64,000 nucleotides of DNA from Ancylomarina subtilis. GTDB taxonomy: Bacteria > Bacteroidota > Bacteroidia > Bacteroidales > Marinifilaceae. Positions within the stretch are counted from its first letter, which is position 1; the number at the start of each line of letters is the position of its first letter. A program made the translations under genes and the position numbers. The notes beneath the pieces are model-generated. The model was given only the letters and a program-made list of their open reading frames with translations. It searched no databases and had not been told where the DNA came from. The stretch spans positions 995,781-1,059,780 of the forward strand of contig NZ_SHKN01000001.1 of assembly GCF_004217115.1 (NCBI RefSeq). The letters are read 5' to 3'. Below, piece by piece: positions 41,253-49,293 of this stretch.

Positions 41253-41283
41253 AAAAAAGGTGCGGGACTCCCCCCACACCTTT
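41253..41283 (-). terminator. Terminator of the 41-46 kb cluster
   Basis: Minus strand AAAGGTGTGGGGG-GAGT-CCCGCACCTTTTTT, ~90 bp after the stop of the last cluster gene at 41372. Confidence 0.8.
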
Positions 41284-41371: not shown

Positions 41372-42382
41372 TCAAATACACTGAGTCATTTCCCTTTTGG
41401 AGTCCGTATGAATTTCATGCGCTTGTTTATTCAGCAACGAAACAATAAGAGCGACGGCTACACCCGCATTGTGTGCACCCGAAACATTTTGAGCATACAC
41501 TTTGGGATTCACATCAGTCGCAAACATCTTGTAGCGATCAACCTCTCCACTCACAAAAATGAAGGGTGGTTTGTGTTTCTTAAGGTGATCTTTTGCAGCC
41601 TTATAAATCAGACAATGGGTTGTCTCCAATGAAACCCCGTTGGGGTCATGAGGATAGTGAGCCGCGAAGGCCGCACCGGTTTCTCCATCCTTTTGGGCAT
41701 ATAGGCTATAATCGGTTACATTCACATCACCCAAGGCAACAAAATCTTTATCTACATAAACCTGCTGACCCTCCAATGCAGGATTGGTGGGAGGACAAAG
41801 CATTAATTGACTGTAATCTGTAAAATCCACAGCCTTCAGCTGATCAATAAAAGTGGTCGATCCTGATTCCATAATTTTATCCCAGGAATGACATTGGTAA
41901 TGGCTCTTTGATTGATCATCGCCACCATTGTGCATAAACACCCGACTCCCAATCACCACCGAACCATTAATATTGGACGATTTAAAAACGGGATTATGGG
42001 CCAGCCCCGGACCTGAAGAGGCCGTTCCTACTGCAACAACCAATTCAATTTTCTTTTCTATGTCGTACTTAAAAATGATAGGCAGAAGCTTCATTTTTTC
42101 TTCCGAACTCGATTGGAATTCCTCAGGGCTGCAACTCAACAAATCGGATATACACCAAACTTCAATTGTTTTGAAATCTGTATCCAAAACCAATCTTGGA
42201 AGAGTATCCTCAGCACGAGTAGATTTCACGGGTCCGTAGGAAGGATAAGTCAGGCAAGTTAGCCGGGCATCCAACTCGATACCACATTGTTCGTTGATAT
42301 ATTTGTTGGTCAACACCCAACAAACCGGATCACACTCCCAGTACTTATTGACAACGATAATAACTCTTGTTTTTTTGCTCAT
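41372..42382 (-). CDS. Nucleoside-phosphorylase-fold protein (cluster gene 4)
   Basis: 336 residues, no signal peptide. Several stretches match the PNP/UDP phosphorylase superfamily: VVAVGTASSGPG (phosphate/nucleoside loop, ~113-124), SLETTHCLIYKAAK, FIFVSGEVDRYKMF (the 'IRGISD' position), and NVSGAHNAGVAVALIVSLL (final helix). The N-terminal ~110 residues are unusual and Cys-rich (KYWECDPVCWVLTNKY). It may cleave or only bind a nucleoside-like molecule. It is the last gene of the 45.7-41.4 kb run, 48 bp after its neighbour, ahead of a good terminator. Confidence 0.65.
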   Translation of the reverse strand: MSKKTRVIIVVNKYWECDPVCWVLTNKYINEQCGIELDARLTCLTYPSYGPVKSTRAEDTLPRLVLDTDFKTIEVWCISDLLSCSPEEFQSSSEEKMKLLPIIFKYDIEKKIELVVAVGTASSGPGLAHNPVFKSSNINGSVVIGSRVFMHNGGDDQSKSHYQCHSWDKIMESGSTTFIDQLKAVDFTDYSQLMLCPPTNPALEGQQVYVDKDFVALGDVNVTDYSLYAQKDGETGAAFAAHYPHDPNGVSLETTHCLIYKAAKDHLKKHKPPFIFVSGEVDRYKMFATDVNPKVYAQNVSGAHNAGVAVALIVSLLNKQAHEIHTDSKREMTQCI

Positions 42383-42430
42383 AATAATTGAATAATAGAT
42401 GTAATAGAAATACGATAGTTTAAGATAATT

Positions 42431-43492
42431 TTAAGGCGCATCAACTTTGGGAGATAAGGGAATCACCTCGCTAACCCATGCAATGATCTGTATGGAAGGC
42501 TTATGGGACGCAGGCCCTGACATCAGAAAAGGCCCCAAATAGGCCGTATCGCTACTGGCCAACGACTTATCCATAATCGTTTTATCATCCTGGTGCCAGT
42601 TGGCATTCAATTTAACGTCTCTGGCAATCAGCATGCCTGTAGGAATCAGAGGAAAGGCTCCCTCGTTTACCTTAGATGAACCCGAAGAACAAAAACCGGC
42701 CTGCTGACCTGACAAGTACCACTGATTCATTTTAAACAAAAGAAGATTAAACCAGGGGCGTCGAAACTCAACAAAAAGGTATTTCATGTCGAGGGATTCA
42801 ATTTTCGTTTCAGGGTTCATTGCCTGAGTTGTTTGCCCTCCCAAATTCCATTGCAGCTTTTCTTTTCCTTGAATCGTTCCAAAAAGACCATTCTCAGAAC
42901 TGTTGTTTAGATCAACCGACACCTCACTAAAACGGCTAATATCAGCCGTCGCCCAATCTTCAGGACTGGCATAAACAGGTCTCCAATCACCGGAGGTGCC
43001 ATCCATATCCTGAAAATATTCTTCTTCGAATTGTTTTTTGGCATTGGCGATCACACCACTGACAAAGGGGTCGTTTCTCAGAATGGTGGCCCCATTCAGA
43101 AAATTGGCATACAACATTTCGGTTGAATATGAGGATGCAAAATAATTCGGATCGAATTTTGGAACCGGATCAACCAATTGTCGAAAAGCAAACAGGGGTT
43201 TCAAATCGCCATTGGGATTGGAACCGGATCTCGCGTCTTTATAAGCATCAGGATCAAGACTAACGGGCAGTTGATTCAATTGAAAAATGGGTTTGTTTTG
43301 CGGCTGGACATCAAGTACATTGCCAGCCAGGGAAGGATTTCCGATCAAGGAGGAAGCCTGCTGAAAACCTGAGGCAAACTGGTTGCCGGAAAAGCTCAGA
43401 CCTGCTTTTTCAGCTGATCTCAAATCGGCGGTCTCGAATTCGCTCGCTCTGGGTATTTTGACTGAATTGGCTATTGCTTTTATTAAATCCAT
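42431..43492 (-). CDS. Unknown protein with the shared 'WFN-LIPTG' C-terminal domain (cluster gene 3)
   Basis: 353 residues, no signal peptide or membrane helix. Residues ~1-160 are low in recognisable features. From ~230 it shares a domain with the 472-aa neighbour: RPWFNLLLFKMNQWYLSG, FPLIPTGMLIARDVKL, QDDKTIMDKSLAS, YLGPFLMSGP, and IQIIAWVSEVIPLSP. This domain is not one I can name. The internal SANWG-type beta segment seen in the neighbour is shorter here. Probably cytosolic. A terminator-like hairpin (43564-43592) lies between the two paralogues. Confidence 0.7.
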   Translation of the reverse strand: MDLIKAIANSVKIPRASEFETADLRSAEKAGLSFSGNQFASGFQQASSLIGNPSLAGNVLDVQPQNKPIFQLNQLPVSLDPDAYKDARSGSNPNGDLKPLFAFRQLVDPVPKFDPNYFASSYSTEMLYANFLNGATILRNDPFVSGVIANAKKQFEEEYFQDMDGTSGDWRPVYASPEDWATADISRFSEVSVDLNNSSENGLFGTIQGKEKLQWNLGGQTTQAMNPETKIESLDMKYLFVEFRRPWFNLLLFKMNQWYLSGQQAGFCSSGSSKVNEGAFPLIPTGMLIARDVKLNANWHQDDKTIMDKSLASSDTAYLGPFLMSGPASHKPSIQIIAWVSEVIPLSPKVDAP

Positions 43493-43563
43493 CGTCTTTT
43501 TTCTAAATCATTACAAGCTGTAAACAAGCTTTTCAAACTTTACTCTCATAAGGCAGGTTTAAT

Positions 43564-43592
43564 AAGAGGTGAGCTACAGACTCACCTCTTTT
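43564..43592 (-). terminator. Internal hairpin between the two cluster paralogues
   Basis: Perfect AAGAGGTGAG / CTCACCTCTT stem, 7-nt loop. The T-run on the minus strand is weak (TTATTAAA), so it may only attenuate transcription into the downstream two genes. Confidence 0.6.
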
Positions 43593-43608
43593 GATCTATC
43601 AAGGGGAA

Positions 43609-45027
43609 TTAAAATAATTTTGCTTCGCCTTGTTGATTGGCACTTTCAAGTTGTTTTGCAGCTTCCGGTGGACTATAAGGCATGATGCTATTGATCCATC
43701 CAATCAACTGAAGTCCTGGCAACTCAAGTGTTCCCCCATCAAATTTCGCCTGGAAATTGCTTTTCGACGAACTATGAGAATAACTTCCGCTCACACTGAA
43801 TGGTCCCCATCCGCCTGAAGCTTTGGTCGAAATTGATTTCGCAATAAAGCTTTTATCTTCAGAAGAAAAATCGGCTGTAATTTTCACATTACGAGCAATA
43901 ATAAAACCGGTTGGAATTAATGGCATAATCCCCAATAGGTTTTCAATTTGAGCATTTGAAATGCCACCCTTCTCAATACCATTCACAAACCAATCCTTCA
44001 TTTTCAGAATCAATGGATTGAACCATGAACGCTTAATGGTTACATTAATCAGTTCGGCTTCCAGTGTTAAATTTTCAGCATCCATATGCGATCGCTGCTC
44101 TTCTGAACTTCCGGAAACACCACCTGAAGCATGCCACAAGCCCCAGCTTCCACTAGCTTCTGACGCATATTGAGTCGCAGAACTACTGGCTGTTTTATTT
44201 AAATAAGAGCTTTTGAATGTTAGTTTTGAAGCCTTACAGCTGTCATCGTACCAATTGGTAGGCAAGGCATACGAAGGCAGCCATGGGTTGCCACCAGGTG
44301 TAGATGGTGCCATTTGATGCTGTTCATTAATCATCTTAATGCTTTCAGCAATTACATATTTAACCGCATCGTTGATGGTAGACACAAGGGCATTCTGAGC
44401 CTCTTCAACTTCGGCTTTGCTTGCACGAACCCACTTGTTCCATGCCTGATCCAGAGTCAGCTGCAGCCCGGGTGCAACAGCATTCCAAGCTCTTTGATCT
44501 TCTTTTTTGTCCAAATCGTAACCATCATAAGCCGTACGATATCCACCAACAGCCGTAATATAAGCCGCTTGTGCCTCATCGTAAGCATCAGCCTCAGGAC
44601 TGGGTTCGGTCACAGTTTTAACCCCACTCATTGTCTTCTTCTCAACTTCCACATTAAGGAAATTGAAAGCCTGCTGATAGAGTTTCTGCTGGTCGGGATT
44701 GGGTTTACTATCCGAGTTCGCACCTCGAACGATAGTCCCGTATACATCCGATATTTTTTGACCCGAATCGCTCCACATGGCATCGGTGTTTGGCAAAGCA
44801 TCTACCATCGCCGAAAAGAGTTCAGCTTTGGTTAAACTTCCATTGGGATTTCCCGGATTCATCATATCCACAAAATCATCAGGATTGATGACAATATTCT
44901 TTGCAAATTGAATAAAGGTTGTATCCTTATGCCAGGAAGCAACCTTACCATCAGGCGAGTATGTGATGGCATCAAAAAGACGATCGTATAAACTTTCAAG
45001 AACTTGTTTTTCTTTATCAGGTGTCAT
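43609..45027 (-). CDS. Unknown protein with the shared 'WFN-LIPTG' C-terminal domain (cluster gene 2)
   Basis: 472 residues, no signal peptide. The N-terminal ~240 residues are helical (MTPDKEKQVLESLYDRLFDAITYSPDG ... LDQAWNKWVRASKAEVEEAQNALVSTINDAVKYV). The C-terminal half is Ser/Gly-rich and probably beta: SGSWGLWHASGGVSGSSEEQRSH, RSWFNPLILKMKDWFVNG, MPLIPTGFIIARNVKI, SEDKSFIAKSI, GGWGPFSVSGSYSHSSSKS, LQLIGWINSIMPYSPPE. The two GxWGxxxxSGxxS strips are an internal duplication. The 353-aa neighbour shares the C-terminal domain. No known family recognised; the gene appears intact. Confidence 0.72.
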   Translation of the reverse strand: MTPDKEKQVLESLYDRLFDAITYSPDGKVASWHKDTTFIQFAKNIVINPDDFVDMMNPGNPNGSLTKAELFSAMVDALPNTDAMWSDSGQKISDVYGTIVRGANSDSKPNPDQQKLYQQAFNFLNVEVEKKTMSGVKTVTEPSPEADAYDEAQAAYITAVGGYRTAYDGYDLDKKEDQRAWNAVAPGLQLTLDQAWNKWVRASKAEVEEAQNALVSTINDAVKYVIAESIKMINEQHQMAPSTPGGNPWLPSYALPTNWYDDSCKASKLTFKSSYLNKTASSSATQYASEASGSWGLWHASGGVSGSSEEQRSHMDAENLTLEAELINVTIKRSWFNPLILKMKDWFVNGIEKGGISNAQIENLLGIMPLIPTGFIIARNVKITADFSSEDKSFIAKSISTKASGGWGPFSVSGSYSHSSSKSNFQAKFDGGTLELPGLQLIGWINSIMPYSPPEAAKQLESANQQGEAKLF

Positions 45028-45232
45028 AATTTCAATTTTAATAGATTAAATGAATTAATTAAATCAGGCCTAAAGGGACAGCTACATGATAAAAAACCTC
45101 TGCATGTACTATATCAATCATGCCCCTTTGCAAATCAGCTACGAAACCTCATTGCTTCGGTATAATCATCCGATTTTTTCGTAGGAAAAGACCTGAGAAT
45201 GCTCCGGGAAACGCCGGAATATAAACCTTCAA

Positions 45233-45709
45233 CTAGTGTTGTTTCGCCATCTGATTGGTCAAGCTTCTCGCTTCAGCCCAATTGATTTGACCCGAGTTCG
45301 CTCCAATAACAACATCATTACCTAAATTGGTTCTAAAATGCCAGTGCGGTTCAATTGCAGCAGGATGAACCAAAGGCCAGCTTAAGCAAATCTGAGTAAA
45401 TTTATCGCCTCCATTTTGTGTGTGGAAAATTTGAATGGCTTCTTTAATTCCAATTTTATAGTCGTCAAACGCCACAATTCCAAGCGGACACATAACCGGT
45501 TGTGCCATTGTTGTTCCCATCAAAGGCGCCTGAGCGGAATAATAAGAATAACAGTCCCCATCCTTTGAACGCAAAACAATATCCCAACCTAAAATGTCAC
45601 TTAGATCTGCCCCCATACCGTGCTTAATACGAGCTGTTTTTCTTAATAGGCCATTAAAATTGACACCAGTTTCTTTTTTAGCGCTAGCTAGTAATTCTGA
45701 AATTTTCAT
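45233..45709 (-). CDS. Unknown 158-aa protein (cluster gene 1)
   Basis: Soluble, no signal peptide. Starts MKISELLASAKKETGVNFNGLLRK. The core has GWDIVLRSKDGDCYSYYSAQAP, MCPLGIVAFDDYKIGIKEAIQIFHTQNGGDKFTQICLSWPLVHPAAIEPHWHFRTNLGNDVVIGANSG, which looks like an alternating strand/helix fold with a conserved-looking PHWHFR strip. No family recognised. First gene of the cluster, ~485 nt downstream of a promoter of the same design as those of the two helical CarboxypepD_reg-like genes. Confidence 0.68.
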   Translation of the reverse strand: MKISELLASAKKETGVNFNGLLRKTARIKHGMGADLSDILGWDIVLRSKDGDCYSYYSAQAPLMGTTMAQPVMCPLGIVAFDDYKIGIKEAIQIFHTQNGGDKFTQICLSWPLVHPAAIEPHWHFRTNLGNDVVIGANSGQINWAEARSLTNQMAKQH

Positions 45710-46801: not shown

Positions 46802-47095
46802 TTAATCGTTTTCATAAAGTCTTAATCTGTTTCTCAAAGCATTTAATTCGTCTCTCAATGCCTTTTCTTTCTCTAAAAGATTAAATACGACATCGATGCC
46901 TTCAATATTAACGTTTAGCTCGTGATGCAAACGGATCATTTTTTCGAGGTCACTTATTTGGTCCTGATGTATAAATTGATCTTGTTCAATGATTACAATT
47001 TGAATCAGTCCTGTTTGGTACAAAGCATCAATAAATGAAAATTCAATCTCGTAGTGCGAACAAAGGGTGGTTATTTCAATTAAATTCTTTTCCAT
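46802..47095 (-). CDS. cbpM: Chaperone modulator CbpM
   Basis: 97 residues with the CbpM/MerR-like pattern: an N-terminal wHTH (LIEITTLCSHYEIEFSFIDALYQTGLIQIVIIEQDQFIHQDQISDLEKMIRLHHELNVNIEGIDVVFNLLEK) and a short coiled coil (EKALRDELNALRNRLRLYE). It begins 1 bp after the cbpA stop and should bind the J-domain of CbpA and restrain it. Confidence 0.88.
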   Translation of the reverse strand: MEKNLIEITTLCSHYEIEFSFIDALYQTGLIQIVIIEQDQFIHQDQISDLEKMIRLHHELNVNIEGIDVVFNLLEKEKALRDELNALRNRLRLYEND

Positions 47096-47096
47096 A

Positions 47097-47984
47097 TTAG
47101 CCTATTTTTTGTAATTCTTTAAATAGCTCCTTTTCTTTCTCGCTCAGGTTTGTAGGAATCTTAATCAGGTAGGTGATTATGAGATCGCCAAATTCGCCCT
47201 CCTTCTTATAAACAGGAAAGCCCTTCCCTTTCAACTTTACTTTAGTTTCGTTTTGTGTTTCAGGTGCTATTTTTAGTTTCACTTTGCCATCAAAAGTATC
47301 CACCATAATCTCGCCGCCTAAAAGTGACGTGTACAGGTTTAGATAAACATTTAAATATAAATTATTACCATCCCGTTTAAATTGTGTCCGATTGATAATG
47401 ATAAACTTAATGTACAGATCGCCATTGGGTCCGCCATTCAATCCCTGGCCTCCCTTTCCTTTTATTTTAATCACCTGACCATTCTCCACACCTGCGGGTA
47501 TGGTCAGCCGTATATTGTTATCATTTACAGTTAATACCCGCTTATGCGTTGTATAAACGTCTTTTAAATCCAAATGCAATTCGGCATGATAATCCTGACC
47601 TTTAAATTTGGGATAATGAGCCTGCCTGTAAGAAGATCGTTTTCCTCCAAACATAGACTCAAAAAAATCCGAATATTCCTGACCTGAAAACCCTTGCTGA
47701 GCAAATCCATGCTGAGACTGTTGTTGCCTTTGATATTGGGCTTTTTCATATTCCTCACCCTGTTTCCAATCCTTACCATACTTATCATATTTATTGCGAT
47801 TTTCGGGCACGCTCAACACTTGGTAGGCTTCATTTATTTCTTTGAATTTGATCTCAGCTTCCTTATTGTCGGGGTTTAAATCCGGATGATATTTCCGGGC
47901 GAGTTTTCGATAGGCCGCTTTAATTTCCTTTACACTTGCGGTTTTCGAAACGCCCAAAATCTTATAATAATCTATAAATGCCAT
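47097..47984 (-). CDS. cbpA: CbpA-type DnaJ co-chaperone
   Basis: 295 residues. J-domain 1-70 with the HPD motif ([20 protein letters not shown]), a Gln/Gly linker ([30 protein letters not shown]), then the DnaJ C-terminal beta domains ([68 protein letters not shown]). It lacks the Cys-rich zinc finger of DnaJ, which identifies the CbpA type. Cotranscribed with cbpM. Transcription is predicted from promoter module D, with a ~170-nt leader. Confidence 0.93.
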
Positions 47985-48372: not shown

Positions 48373-49293
48373 TCAGAGGTGATCAATAGATGCCGGTTCC
48401 AGAAACACATCCAGACGATCGGTCACACCAAAATTGTGAACCAGTGTAATGATCTGGCTTTTATAATTGGTTGCACTAAATTCAATTGGAAAAGTCCCGG
48501 CATCGAGATGTGAAATGCGAAAACCACCTTCTGCACCTCTTATGCTATGCACAATCTCAGCCTCTGGAATCAAAACCCGGGCATTCGGAACGGGTTTTCT
48601 GGTCCGACTATCCTTCACCGACCCGATTAGGGCCATTTTTCTACTTGCGATGCGTTCCCGTCGGACCGCCTGCAAATAAGCGGCATAAACTTCAGGATCG
48701 GATAACTTGAAGAAACTCTCCATCAGTTTATTCAACTGATCGATCTGTAAACGATCTATTTCCTTAGCCAGACTTTCGATTGTGAGCGTGGCACTTTCCT
48801 TTTTCTTAATCATCTCCTGAGGCAAAGCCATATATGACTCCAGAGCCGAACAATTGTCCTTTAACAACTGAAGCATTTCAGCACTAATGCCCATCTCTGC
48901 CAGGCTTTCAGTATTCATATCACAGTACTCAATAATACTAACTGCCTTATGCTTTATGTTCAGAAACGACATCCGCAGCAATTTTTTATAGGTACTCTTG
49001 TAGTTCTCAATATCATTCAACTGATTCTTATTTAAACAGTTGGTATAAATCAGGTTCATAATACTGATTAAACTATGAGCCAAATTTTCTCGTCGCTGTG
49101 TTTTGGCAAGGGTGTATCCCCTGTTATCGGCTGTTTGAATCAAAATAGCTTCATTAAGATCGACTCCCAACTTCAACAACTTGCCTATAAGCGTCCAAAC
49201 CAATGGGATCGCCTCTAATTTTGACTTAAATTCTGTTACAAAATCATTAAACTGGTACAACATTTTTTGTACGGGTATAAATTTCTTATTCAT
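48373..49293 (-). CDS. Helical protein with C-terminal CarboxypepD_reg-like domain, paralogue 2
   Basis: 306 residues, no signal peptide. Residues ~1-220 are helical. Residues ~222-300 carry the beta domain: ALIGSVKDSRTRKPVPNARVLIPE, IRGAEGGFRISHLDAGTFPIEFSATNYKSQIITL. It is the paralogue of the 6640-7566 protein (same length, same two-part layout, matching junction). The promoter class and the presence of a 21-bp array in the leader are also shared, although the array consensus differs. Function unknown; a cytosolic location is predicted, which is unusual for this beta domain. Confidence 0.75.
   Translation of the reverse strand: MNKKFIPVQKMLYQFNDFVTEFKSKLEAIPLVWTLIGKLLKLGVDLNEAILIQTADNRGYTLAKTQRRENLAHSLISIMNLIYTNCLNKNQLNDIENYKSTYKKLLRMSFLNIKHKAVSIIEYCDMNTESLAEMGISAEMLQLLKDNCSALESYMALPQEMIKKKESATLTIESLAKEIDRLQIDQLNKLMESFFKLSDPEVYAAYLQAVRRERIASRKMALIGSVKDSRTRKPVPNARVLIPEAEIVHSIRGAEGGFRISHLDAGTFPIEFSATNYKSQIITLVHNFGVTDRLDVFLEPASIDHL

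What the first reader, a model, noticed from the sequence alone, without database searches (positions are those of the whole stretch)
41372..45709. Unrecognised four-gene cluster: two 'WFN-LIPTG' paralogues, a 158-aa protein and a nucleoside-phosphorylase-fold protein
Four same-strand genes with no signal peptides form a run ending in a strong terminator. Two of them (472 and 353 aa) share a C-terminal domain of ~150 residues with the strips WFN-x-L-x-x-KM, PLIPTG-x-x-IAR-x-VK, GPF-x-x-SG and W-x-x-x-I-P-x-SP, which I cannot place in a known family. The fourth gene looks like a PNP/UDP-phosphorylase fold, which in other accessory systems can act on nucleotides or nucleosides. I infer a dedicated cytosolic system, possibly stress or defence related; the function is not shown by the sequence.
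Basis: partly seen in the sequence, partly recalled or inferred. Interest (0 to 1): 0.8.

Follow-up and report, generated by a model that had tools for sequence, protein, structure and literature searches.

The report
Predicted two-part membrane pore genes
A marine bacterium carries a pair of sister genes of a family that no database names; in distant bacteria the pair keeps the same order and often sits next to enzymes that cut cell walls or proteins, which suggests a new two-part pore-forming (cell-bursting or toxin) device, although this has not been tested in the laboratory.

Summary
In detail: four same-strand genes (158, 472, 353, 336 aa) in Ancylomarina (Bacteroidota), closed by a strong terminator, with a shared domain that no Pfam, NCBIfam, PHROGs, PADLOC or PDB sequence search places. 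The conserved unit is not the four genes but the 472/353 pair: A (472-like) then B (353-like), 8-116 bp apart, in 13 loci from Bacteroidota, Rhizobiales plasmids and Photobacterium. A members share two G/S-rich, aromatic-tipped inserts of near-fixed length (about 40 and 45 residues) between four long strands; in B partners these are mostly lost, shortened or replaced. Five pairs adjoin an endolysin-like wall hydrolase; in four of these genomes it is the only copy of its family over the cut-off, or nearly so. Two loci carry caspase, trypsin-like or papain-like proteases. The only full-length structural match of a low-confidence model is a bacterial gasdermin (Z 6.0). I propose a two-component giant-pore system of the MACPF/CDC/gasdermin type (probability 0.45). 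The 158- and 336-aa genes are loosely attached accessories; the claimed nucleoside-phosphorylase fold was not confirmed. New variant of a known kind, pending structure and leakage assays.

The parts
43609..45027 (-). Component A, 472 aa: N-terminal helices, helical middle (about residues 111-236) and C-terminal beta domain; predicted pore-forming member
44080..44199 (-). Insert 1 of component A (residues 277-316, 40 aa, G/S/T/A-rich, central WGLW): predicted membrane hairpin 1
43732..43866 (-). Insert 2 of component A (residues 388-432, 45 aa, central WGPF, begins with an amphipathic helix): predicted membrane hairpin 2
42431..43492 (-). Component B, 353 aa: paralogue of A without the helical middle and with both inserts shortened (34 and 34 aa)
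45233..45709 (-). 158-aa accessory protein, no family; also found next to other genes in Ancylomarina G001 and in G013
41372..42382 (-). 336-aa accessory protein, no family confirmed; conserved VNK-x-WE, SSSEEK, ETTH and DR motifs; present in sister genomes without the pair
41256..41283 (-). Terminator-like stem-loop closing the run (12 pairs, 6 G-C)
48373..49293 (-). 306-aa protein with a carboxypeptidase-regulatory-like domain; upstream neighbour of this locus in three Ancylomarina genomes (flank, not claimed as a component)

Best explanation
The 472- and 353-aa genes are components A and B of an undescribed family of two-component, giant-pore proteins that work like the MACPF/CDC/gasdermin group. 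A is kept soluble with two G/S/T/A-rich, aromatic-tipped segments packed away; on activation these unfold into two beta-hairpins per subunit and line a beta-barrel pore. B, a paralogue that has mostly lost or replaced the hairpins, recruits, caps or controls A. Where a peptidoglycan hydrolase or protease is encoded beside the pair, the pore would let the hydrolase reach the wall (holin-endolysin style), or the protease would activate the pair. Shown: the family, the A-then-B pairing, the insert asymmetry, and the hydrolase and protease neighbours. Inferred: the fold, membrane insertion, the roles of A and B, and the direction of attack (own cell or another cell). In the window no protease or hydrolase adjoins the pair; its trigger is unknown and may involve the 158- and 336-aa accessory proteins.
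For: (1) Pairing: in 13 loci (12 outside the one sister species) A is directly followed by B, gap 8-116 bp, in Bacteroidota, Rhizobiales plasmids and Photobacterium, at about 21-46% identity outside the genus. (2) Architecture: an AlphaFold2 model of A (pLDDT 59, pTM 0.56) has four long strands (267-276, 317-330, 370-387, 433-448) with low-confidence inserts between strands 1-2 and 3-4. MACPF/CDC share a twisted-sheet core with two segments that become transmembrane hairpins, and gasdermins a similar core with two shorter extension loops (PMC11952106). (3) Inserts in A: insert 2 is 45 aa in 17 of 18, insert 1 is 37-42 aa in 17 of 18. They are enriched in G/S/T/A over the rest of the protein (excess 0.16 in A, 0.06 in B, Mann-Whitney p 9e-5), carry W-G-L-W and W-G-P-F near the middle, and alternate in hydrophobicity more than control regions; in B the inserts range over 15-83 and 2-337 aa. 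(4) Structure search: bacterial gasdermin 7n52_D, Z 6.0, 180 residues aligned across model 6-450; in the 50 VIA-align rows shown it has by far the longest alignment, the others being mostly confined to the helical middle. (5) Partners: N-acetylmuramidase plus caspase and a weak trypsin-like match (L032), muramidase and a weak NlpC/P60-like protein (L033), CHAP plus peptidoglycan-binding (L036, L083), SH3 plus a sub-threshold glycoside hydrolase 19 match (L084), C70 papain-like protease (L039). In G253 and G678 the muramidase, and in G943 and G654 the CHAP gene, is the only copy found in the genome and lies beside the pair. Bacterial gasdermin operons are reported with the same partner types: caspase, trypsin, lysozyme, amidase (PMC9612521).
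Against: The model is of low confidence; Foldseek gives no PDB match at E <= 0.001, and a VIA-align Z of 6 at 5.5 A rmsd is within the range seen by chance. No MACPF signature and no N-terminal cysteine as in most bacterial gasdermins. The window's own locus has no recognisable protease or hydrolase. G/S-rich segments can be flexible linkers or fibre parts rather than membrane hairpins. The apparent repeat of insert 1 in insert 2 is hardly above a reversed-sequence control.
Confidence: 0.45

Rival explanations
1. The pair is an exported or released toxin aimed at other cells (bacterial competitors or grazing eukaryotes), like MACPF or two-component CDC-like toxins; neighbouring wall hydrolases serve release, not suicide. 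(A pore reading too, but with another target.)
For: The three Sinorhizobium paralogues begin with signal-like N termini (L013). Bacteroidota carry two-component CDC-like antibacterial toxins (PMC11952106). In Ancylomarina G001 the two outer genes bracket a radical SAM protein and a weakly PixA-like protein instead of the pair.
Against: The other A and B proteins begin without an evident signal peptide (by eye); no immunity gene or secretion system was recognised beside the pairs; some partners (caspase, trypsin-like) suit an intracellular trigger.
Confidence: 0.22
2. Cytosolic abortive-infection (anti-phage) system, with the pore as the death effector and the variable neighbours as sensors or proteases. 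(A special case of the best explanation.)
For: Rare, patchy, partly plasmid-borne occurrence; loci with Thoeris ThsB-like TIR genes (L013), restriction-modification genes (L012), DUF4062 and HSDR_N (L034) and a KAP NTPase of PADLOC group PDC-S20 (L036) within the fetched stretch.
Against: No defence gene recognised beside the window pair, the Photobacterium pair or most others; no control for how often random genes lie near such genes; none of the four window proteins matches PADLOC.
Confidence: 0.2
3. Not a pore: a two-subunit structural, binding or enzymatic protein whose G/S-rich inserts are exposed loops.
For: No confident fold match; the helical middle is large and variable; the most conserved residues (W335, S357 of the 472-aa protein) could be structural or ligand-binding.
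Against: Near-constant insert lengths, conserved aromatic tips, loss of the inserts in B, and single-copy wall hydrolases beside the pair are not expected from plain loops.
Confidence: 0.33

Closest known systems
Bacterial gasdermins (bGSDM)
   Same: Order of core strands and two inserts in the model; weak full-length structural match to 7n52; operon partners of the same kinds (caspase, trypsin-like, lysozyme or amidase) in several relatives; mostly no signal peptide.
   Different: No detectable sequence similarity in the libraries used; about 340-760 aa instead of a short single domain; no N-terminal cysteine; works as an A+B pair; no protease in the window's locus; helical middle not part of bGSDM.
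Two-component CDC-like proteins (CDCL long and short) of Bacteroidota
   Same: Two paralogous components, two inserts in a sheet core in the proposed reading, found in Bacteroidota.
   Different: Here the second component mostly lacks the inserts, whereas the pore of CDCL is built of the short component while the long one binds the membrane; no sequence match; CDCL is a toxin used against other bacteria.
MACPF proteins
   Same: Four-strand core with two inserts between strands 1-2 and 3-4 in the model.
   Different: MACPF signature absent; no Pfam match; the model is too weak to call the fold.
Phage holin-endolysin lysis cassettes
   Same: Predicted hole-former beside a wall hydrolase (muramidase, CHAP, GH19-like).
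   Different: The hole-former is a large soluble protein pair, not a small transmembrane holin; no match to PHROGs or to phage records.

Membership tests
Bacterial gasdermin | Gasdermin N-domain fold | tested here: inconclusive
   VIA-align Z 6.0, rmsd 5.5 A, 180 aligned residues with 7n52_D from a pLDDT 59 model; no Foldseek hit at E <= 0.001
Bacterial gasdermin | N-terminal cysteine (palmitoylation site, reported for the majority, PMC9612521) | tested here: not met
   No Cys in the first 10 residues of any A member except the signal-bearing L013a
Bacterial gasdermin | Adjacent activating protease | tested here: inconclusive
   Not recognised in the window; present in L032 (caspase, weak trypsin-like) and L039 (C70)
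Bacterial gasdermin | Short C-terminal inhibitory peptide removed by cleavage | not testable with these tools
   Needs a structure and a protease assay
MACPF | Signature [YW]-G-[TS]-H-[FY]-x6-G-G | tested here: not met
   Absent from the 30 family sequences scanned; no credible Pfam match in 10 members
MACPF / CDC / CDCL | Four-strand twisted sheet with two hairpin-forming inserts | tested here: inconclusive
   Strand order and insert positions fit in a low-confidence model; sequence pattern of the inserts fits
CDCL two-component toxin | Pore built of the short component, long component binds the membrane | tested here: inconclusive
   Here the shorter window partner (B) has shortened inserts and A keeps both, the reverse of CDCL; pore composition itself not tested
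PNP/UDP phosphorylase (for the 336-aa protein) | PF01048 profile match or fold | tested here: inconclusive
   No hmmscan match at E <= 1; hhalign with shallow profiles negative; pairwise scores near shuffles; fold not predicted
Known anti-phage systems | Match to PADLOC models | tested here: not met
   No match for the four window proteins at E <= 1

The most novel reading that the evidence does not exclude
A previously undescribed family of two-component giant-pore proteins, spread on chromosomes and plasmids of Bacteroidota and Proteobacteria, in which a hairpin-bearing subunit pairs with a mostly hairpin-less paralogue and cooperates with interchangeable wall hydrolases or proteases: a self-encoded holin-endolysin-like lysis device, convergent with or distantly related to gasdermins.
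Probability: 0.35. Interest if true: 0.8.

Novelty: new variant of a known kind. Interest (0 to 1): 0.62.

Why it matters
Giant pore formers (MACPF, CDC, gasdermin) are central to immunity and cell death, and their bacterial origins are an open question. A further bacterial family with a built-in two-component design and single-copy endolysin-like partners would add another branch for comparison and would make directly testable the idea that pore plus wall hydrolase forms a cell-lysis programme. If the pore reading fails, this is still an unclassified protein family with a striking conserved pair organisation.

Tried and rejected
Single-sequence AlphaFold2 of the 353-aa protein failed (pLDDT 30). 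Foldseek against PDB and viral models gave nothing at E <= 0.001; most VIA-align rows match only the helical middle and were not used. Internal duplication of the two inserts: hhalign 94.6%, E 7e-8, but the reversed control scores E 2e-6, so it is set aside as unproven. PNP fold of the 336-aa protein: not confirmed; its motifs look PNP-like by eye only. A PepSY-like reading of the 158-aa protein is by eye only, with no family match. Phage origin: no match in phage records or in viral contigs with three pattern sets. The Trypco2 hit of one member (E 0.48) was discarded as chance. A Bacteroidota -33/-7 promoter pattern has no match upstream of the run. A PF01048 hit at E 0.057 in G000 (L065) was not pursued.

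Full report
What is there. The window is from Ancylomarina (Marinifilaceae, Bacteroidota): the sister genome carrying the same run is A. salipaludis. Four same-strand genes of 158, 472, 353 and 336 aa stand at the stated coordinates, followed by a 12-pair terminator-like hairpin. None matches Pfam, NCBIfam, PHROGs or PADLOC at E <= 1; profile searches of PDB sequences with family alignments also give only chance hits.

The conserved unit is the pair. Searches with the 472-aa protein and a family profile find the family in about 1-2% of sampled Bacteroidia and Bacteroidota genomes (4 of 395; 8 of 395), on Rhizobiales plasmids, in Photobacterium alginatilyticum and in proteobacterial MAGs. In 13 loci the 472-like gene (A) is directly followed by the 353-like gene (B) at 8-116 bp; Sinorhizobium has three copies in a row. 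Single copies also exist (L012, L037, L044, L045, L046). A proteins are as little as 23% identical to the window's, B proteins as little as 21%.

The 158- and 336-aa genes are accessories. In Ancylomarina G005 the 336-aa homologue (77%) sits between the same upstream 306-aa neighbour (61%) and the same downstream small protein (73%), but without the 158-472-353 block. In Ancylomarina G001 the 158- and 336-aa homologues (76% and 69%) bracket a radical SAM/SPASM protein and a protein with a weak, sub-threshold PixA match (E 0.027) instead of the pair. A distant 158-aa homologue in G013 is beside an unrelated 441-aa protein. So the outer genes and the pair can be separated, and the central slot appears exchangeable; this rests on two cases. 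The nucleoside-phosphorylase reading of the 336-aa protein was not confirmed.

Anatomy of the pair. An eight-sequence AlphaFold2 model of the 472-aa protein is of low confidence (pLDDT 59, pTM 0.56) but gives a clear order: N-terminal helices, a helical middle, then four long strands at 267-276, 317-330, 370-387 and 433-448 with poorly modelled inserts after strands 1 and 3. In 18 A sequences insert 2 is 45 residues in 17 and insert 1 is 37-42 in 17; both carry a conserved aromatic tip (WGLW, WGPF) near the middle, are rich in G, S, T and A, and show above-shuffle alternation of hydrophobicity (mean z 0.7 and 1.0 against -0.3 to -0.8 in control regions). In B partners the inserts are shortened (34 and 34 in the window), missing, or replaced by unrelated sequence of up to 337 residues, although L011b and L013b keep an insert 2 of about normal length. 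Enrichment of G/S/T/A differs between A and B (p 9e-5). A and B were assigned by gene position and profile score and the sequences are related, so this test is not fully independent. A suspected internal repeat of the two inserts did not clearly beat its reversed control.

Structure comparison. Foldseek finds nothing at E <= 0.001. Among the 50 VIA-align rows shown, nearly all cover mainly the helical middle; one, the Runella bacterial gasdermin 7n52_D, aligns 180 residues over the whole model at Z 6.0 and 5.5 A. The tool's own notes say that Z under 8 can be chance, so this is a lead, not proof. It agrees with the strand-insert pattern of the model.

Neighbours. Five pairs adjoin, directly or within three genes, an endolysin-like hydrolase: N-acetylmuramidase with a peptidoglycan-binding domain (L032; L033, with a weak NlpC/P60-like protein), CHAP with a peptidoglycan-binding domain (L036, L083), and SH3 with a sub-threshold GH19 match (L084). 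G253 and G678 have one muramidase each, the one by the pair; G654 and G943 have one CHAP gene each, again the one by the pair. Elsewhere the families are rare: G620 has two muramidases away from its pair, and G381, G678 and G253 have CHAP matches away from theirs. Four such coincidences are very unlikely by chance (inference from genome size) and involve at least two enzyme types. L032 also has a caspase (E 4e-31) and a weak trypsin-like match, and L039 a C70 papain-like protease. A review of bacterial gasdermin operons lists the same partner kinds and points to the holin-endolysin analogy (PMC9612521). Some loci lie near defence genes (L012, L013, L034, L036), without a control. The Sinorhizobium copies begin with signal-like sequences, which argues that at least some members act outside the cytosol.

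Reading. The most economical explanation is a two-component giant-pore device in which A inserts two hairpins and B assists or restrains it, coupled in different genomes to a wall hydrolase or a protease. Shown: the family, the pairing and its order, the insert asymmetry, the partner genes. Inferred: the fold, membrane insertion, division of labour and target. In the window the partner enzyme is missing, so how this copy is triggered is unknown. I put 0.45 on the pore reading, split between self-lysis or defence and attack on other cells (so the confidences of the rivals overlap with it), and 0.33 on a non-pore function. Membership in bGSDM, MACPF or CDCL is not claimed: a typical feature was not met or stayed inconclusive for each. 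It may still work like them.

Noticed in passing
window 46802-47984: A DnaJ-type chaperone (CbpA-like) and a MerR_2 (CbpM-like) gene lie between the 306-aa gene and the cluster in the window but not in A. salipaludis (L040), so this locus has rearranged recently.
   Followed up: partly
L054:5343-8762: In Ancylomarina G001 the 158- and 336-aa homologues bracket a radical SAM/SPASM protein and a protein with a weak PixA (inclusion body protein) match, as if the central genes were exchanged.
   Followed up: partly
L013:1742-11529: Sinorhizobium meliloti plasmid with a radical SAM gene followed by three family members, all with signal-like N termini, about 4 kb from two ThsB-like TIR genes.
   Followed up: partly
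L047:4500-6416: A broken remnant of the 336-aa family (including an N-terminal VNKSWE motif in another frame) lies upstream of an S8 peptidase gene on a Bradyrhizobium plasmid.
   Followed up: partly
L037:7592-9754: A lone 720-aa family member with two strongly serine-rich inserts and no B partner, between transporter and peroxiredoxin-like genes.
   Followed up: no
L060:6993-8896: A distant 158-aa homologue (173 aa) beside a 441-aa protein of no Pfam family that looks lipid-binding (TULIP-like) by eye.
   Followed up: no
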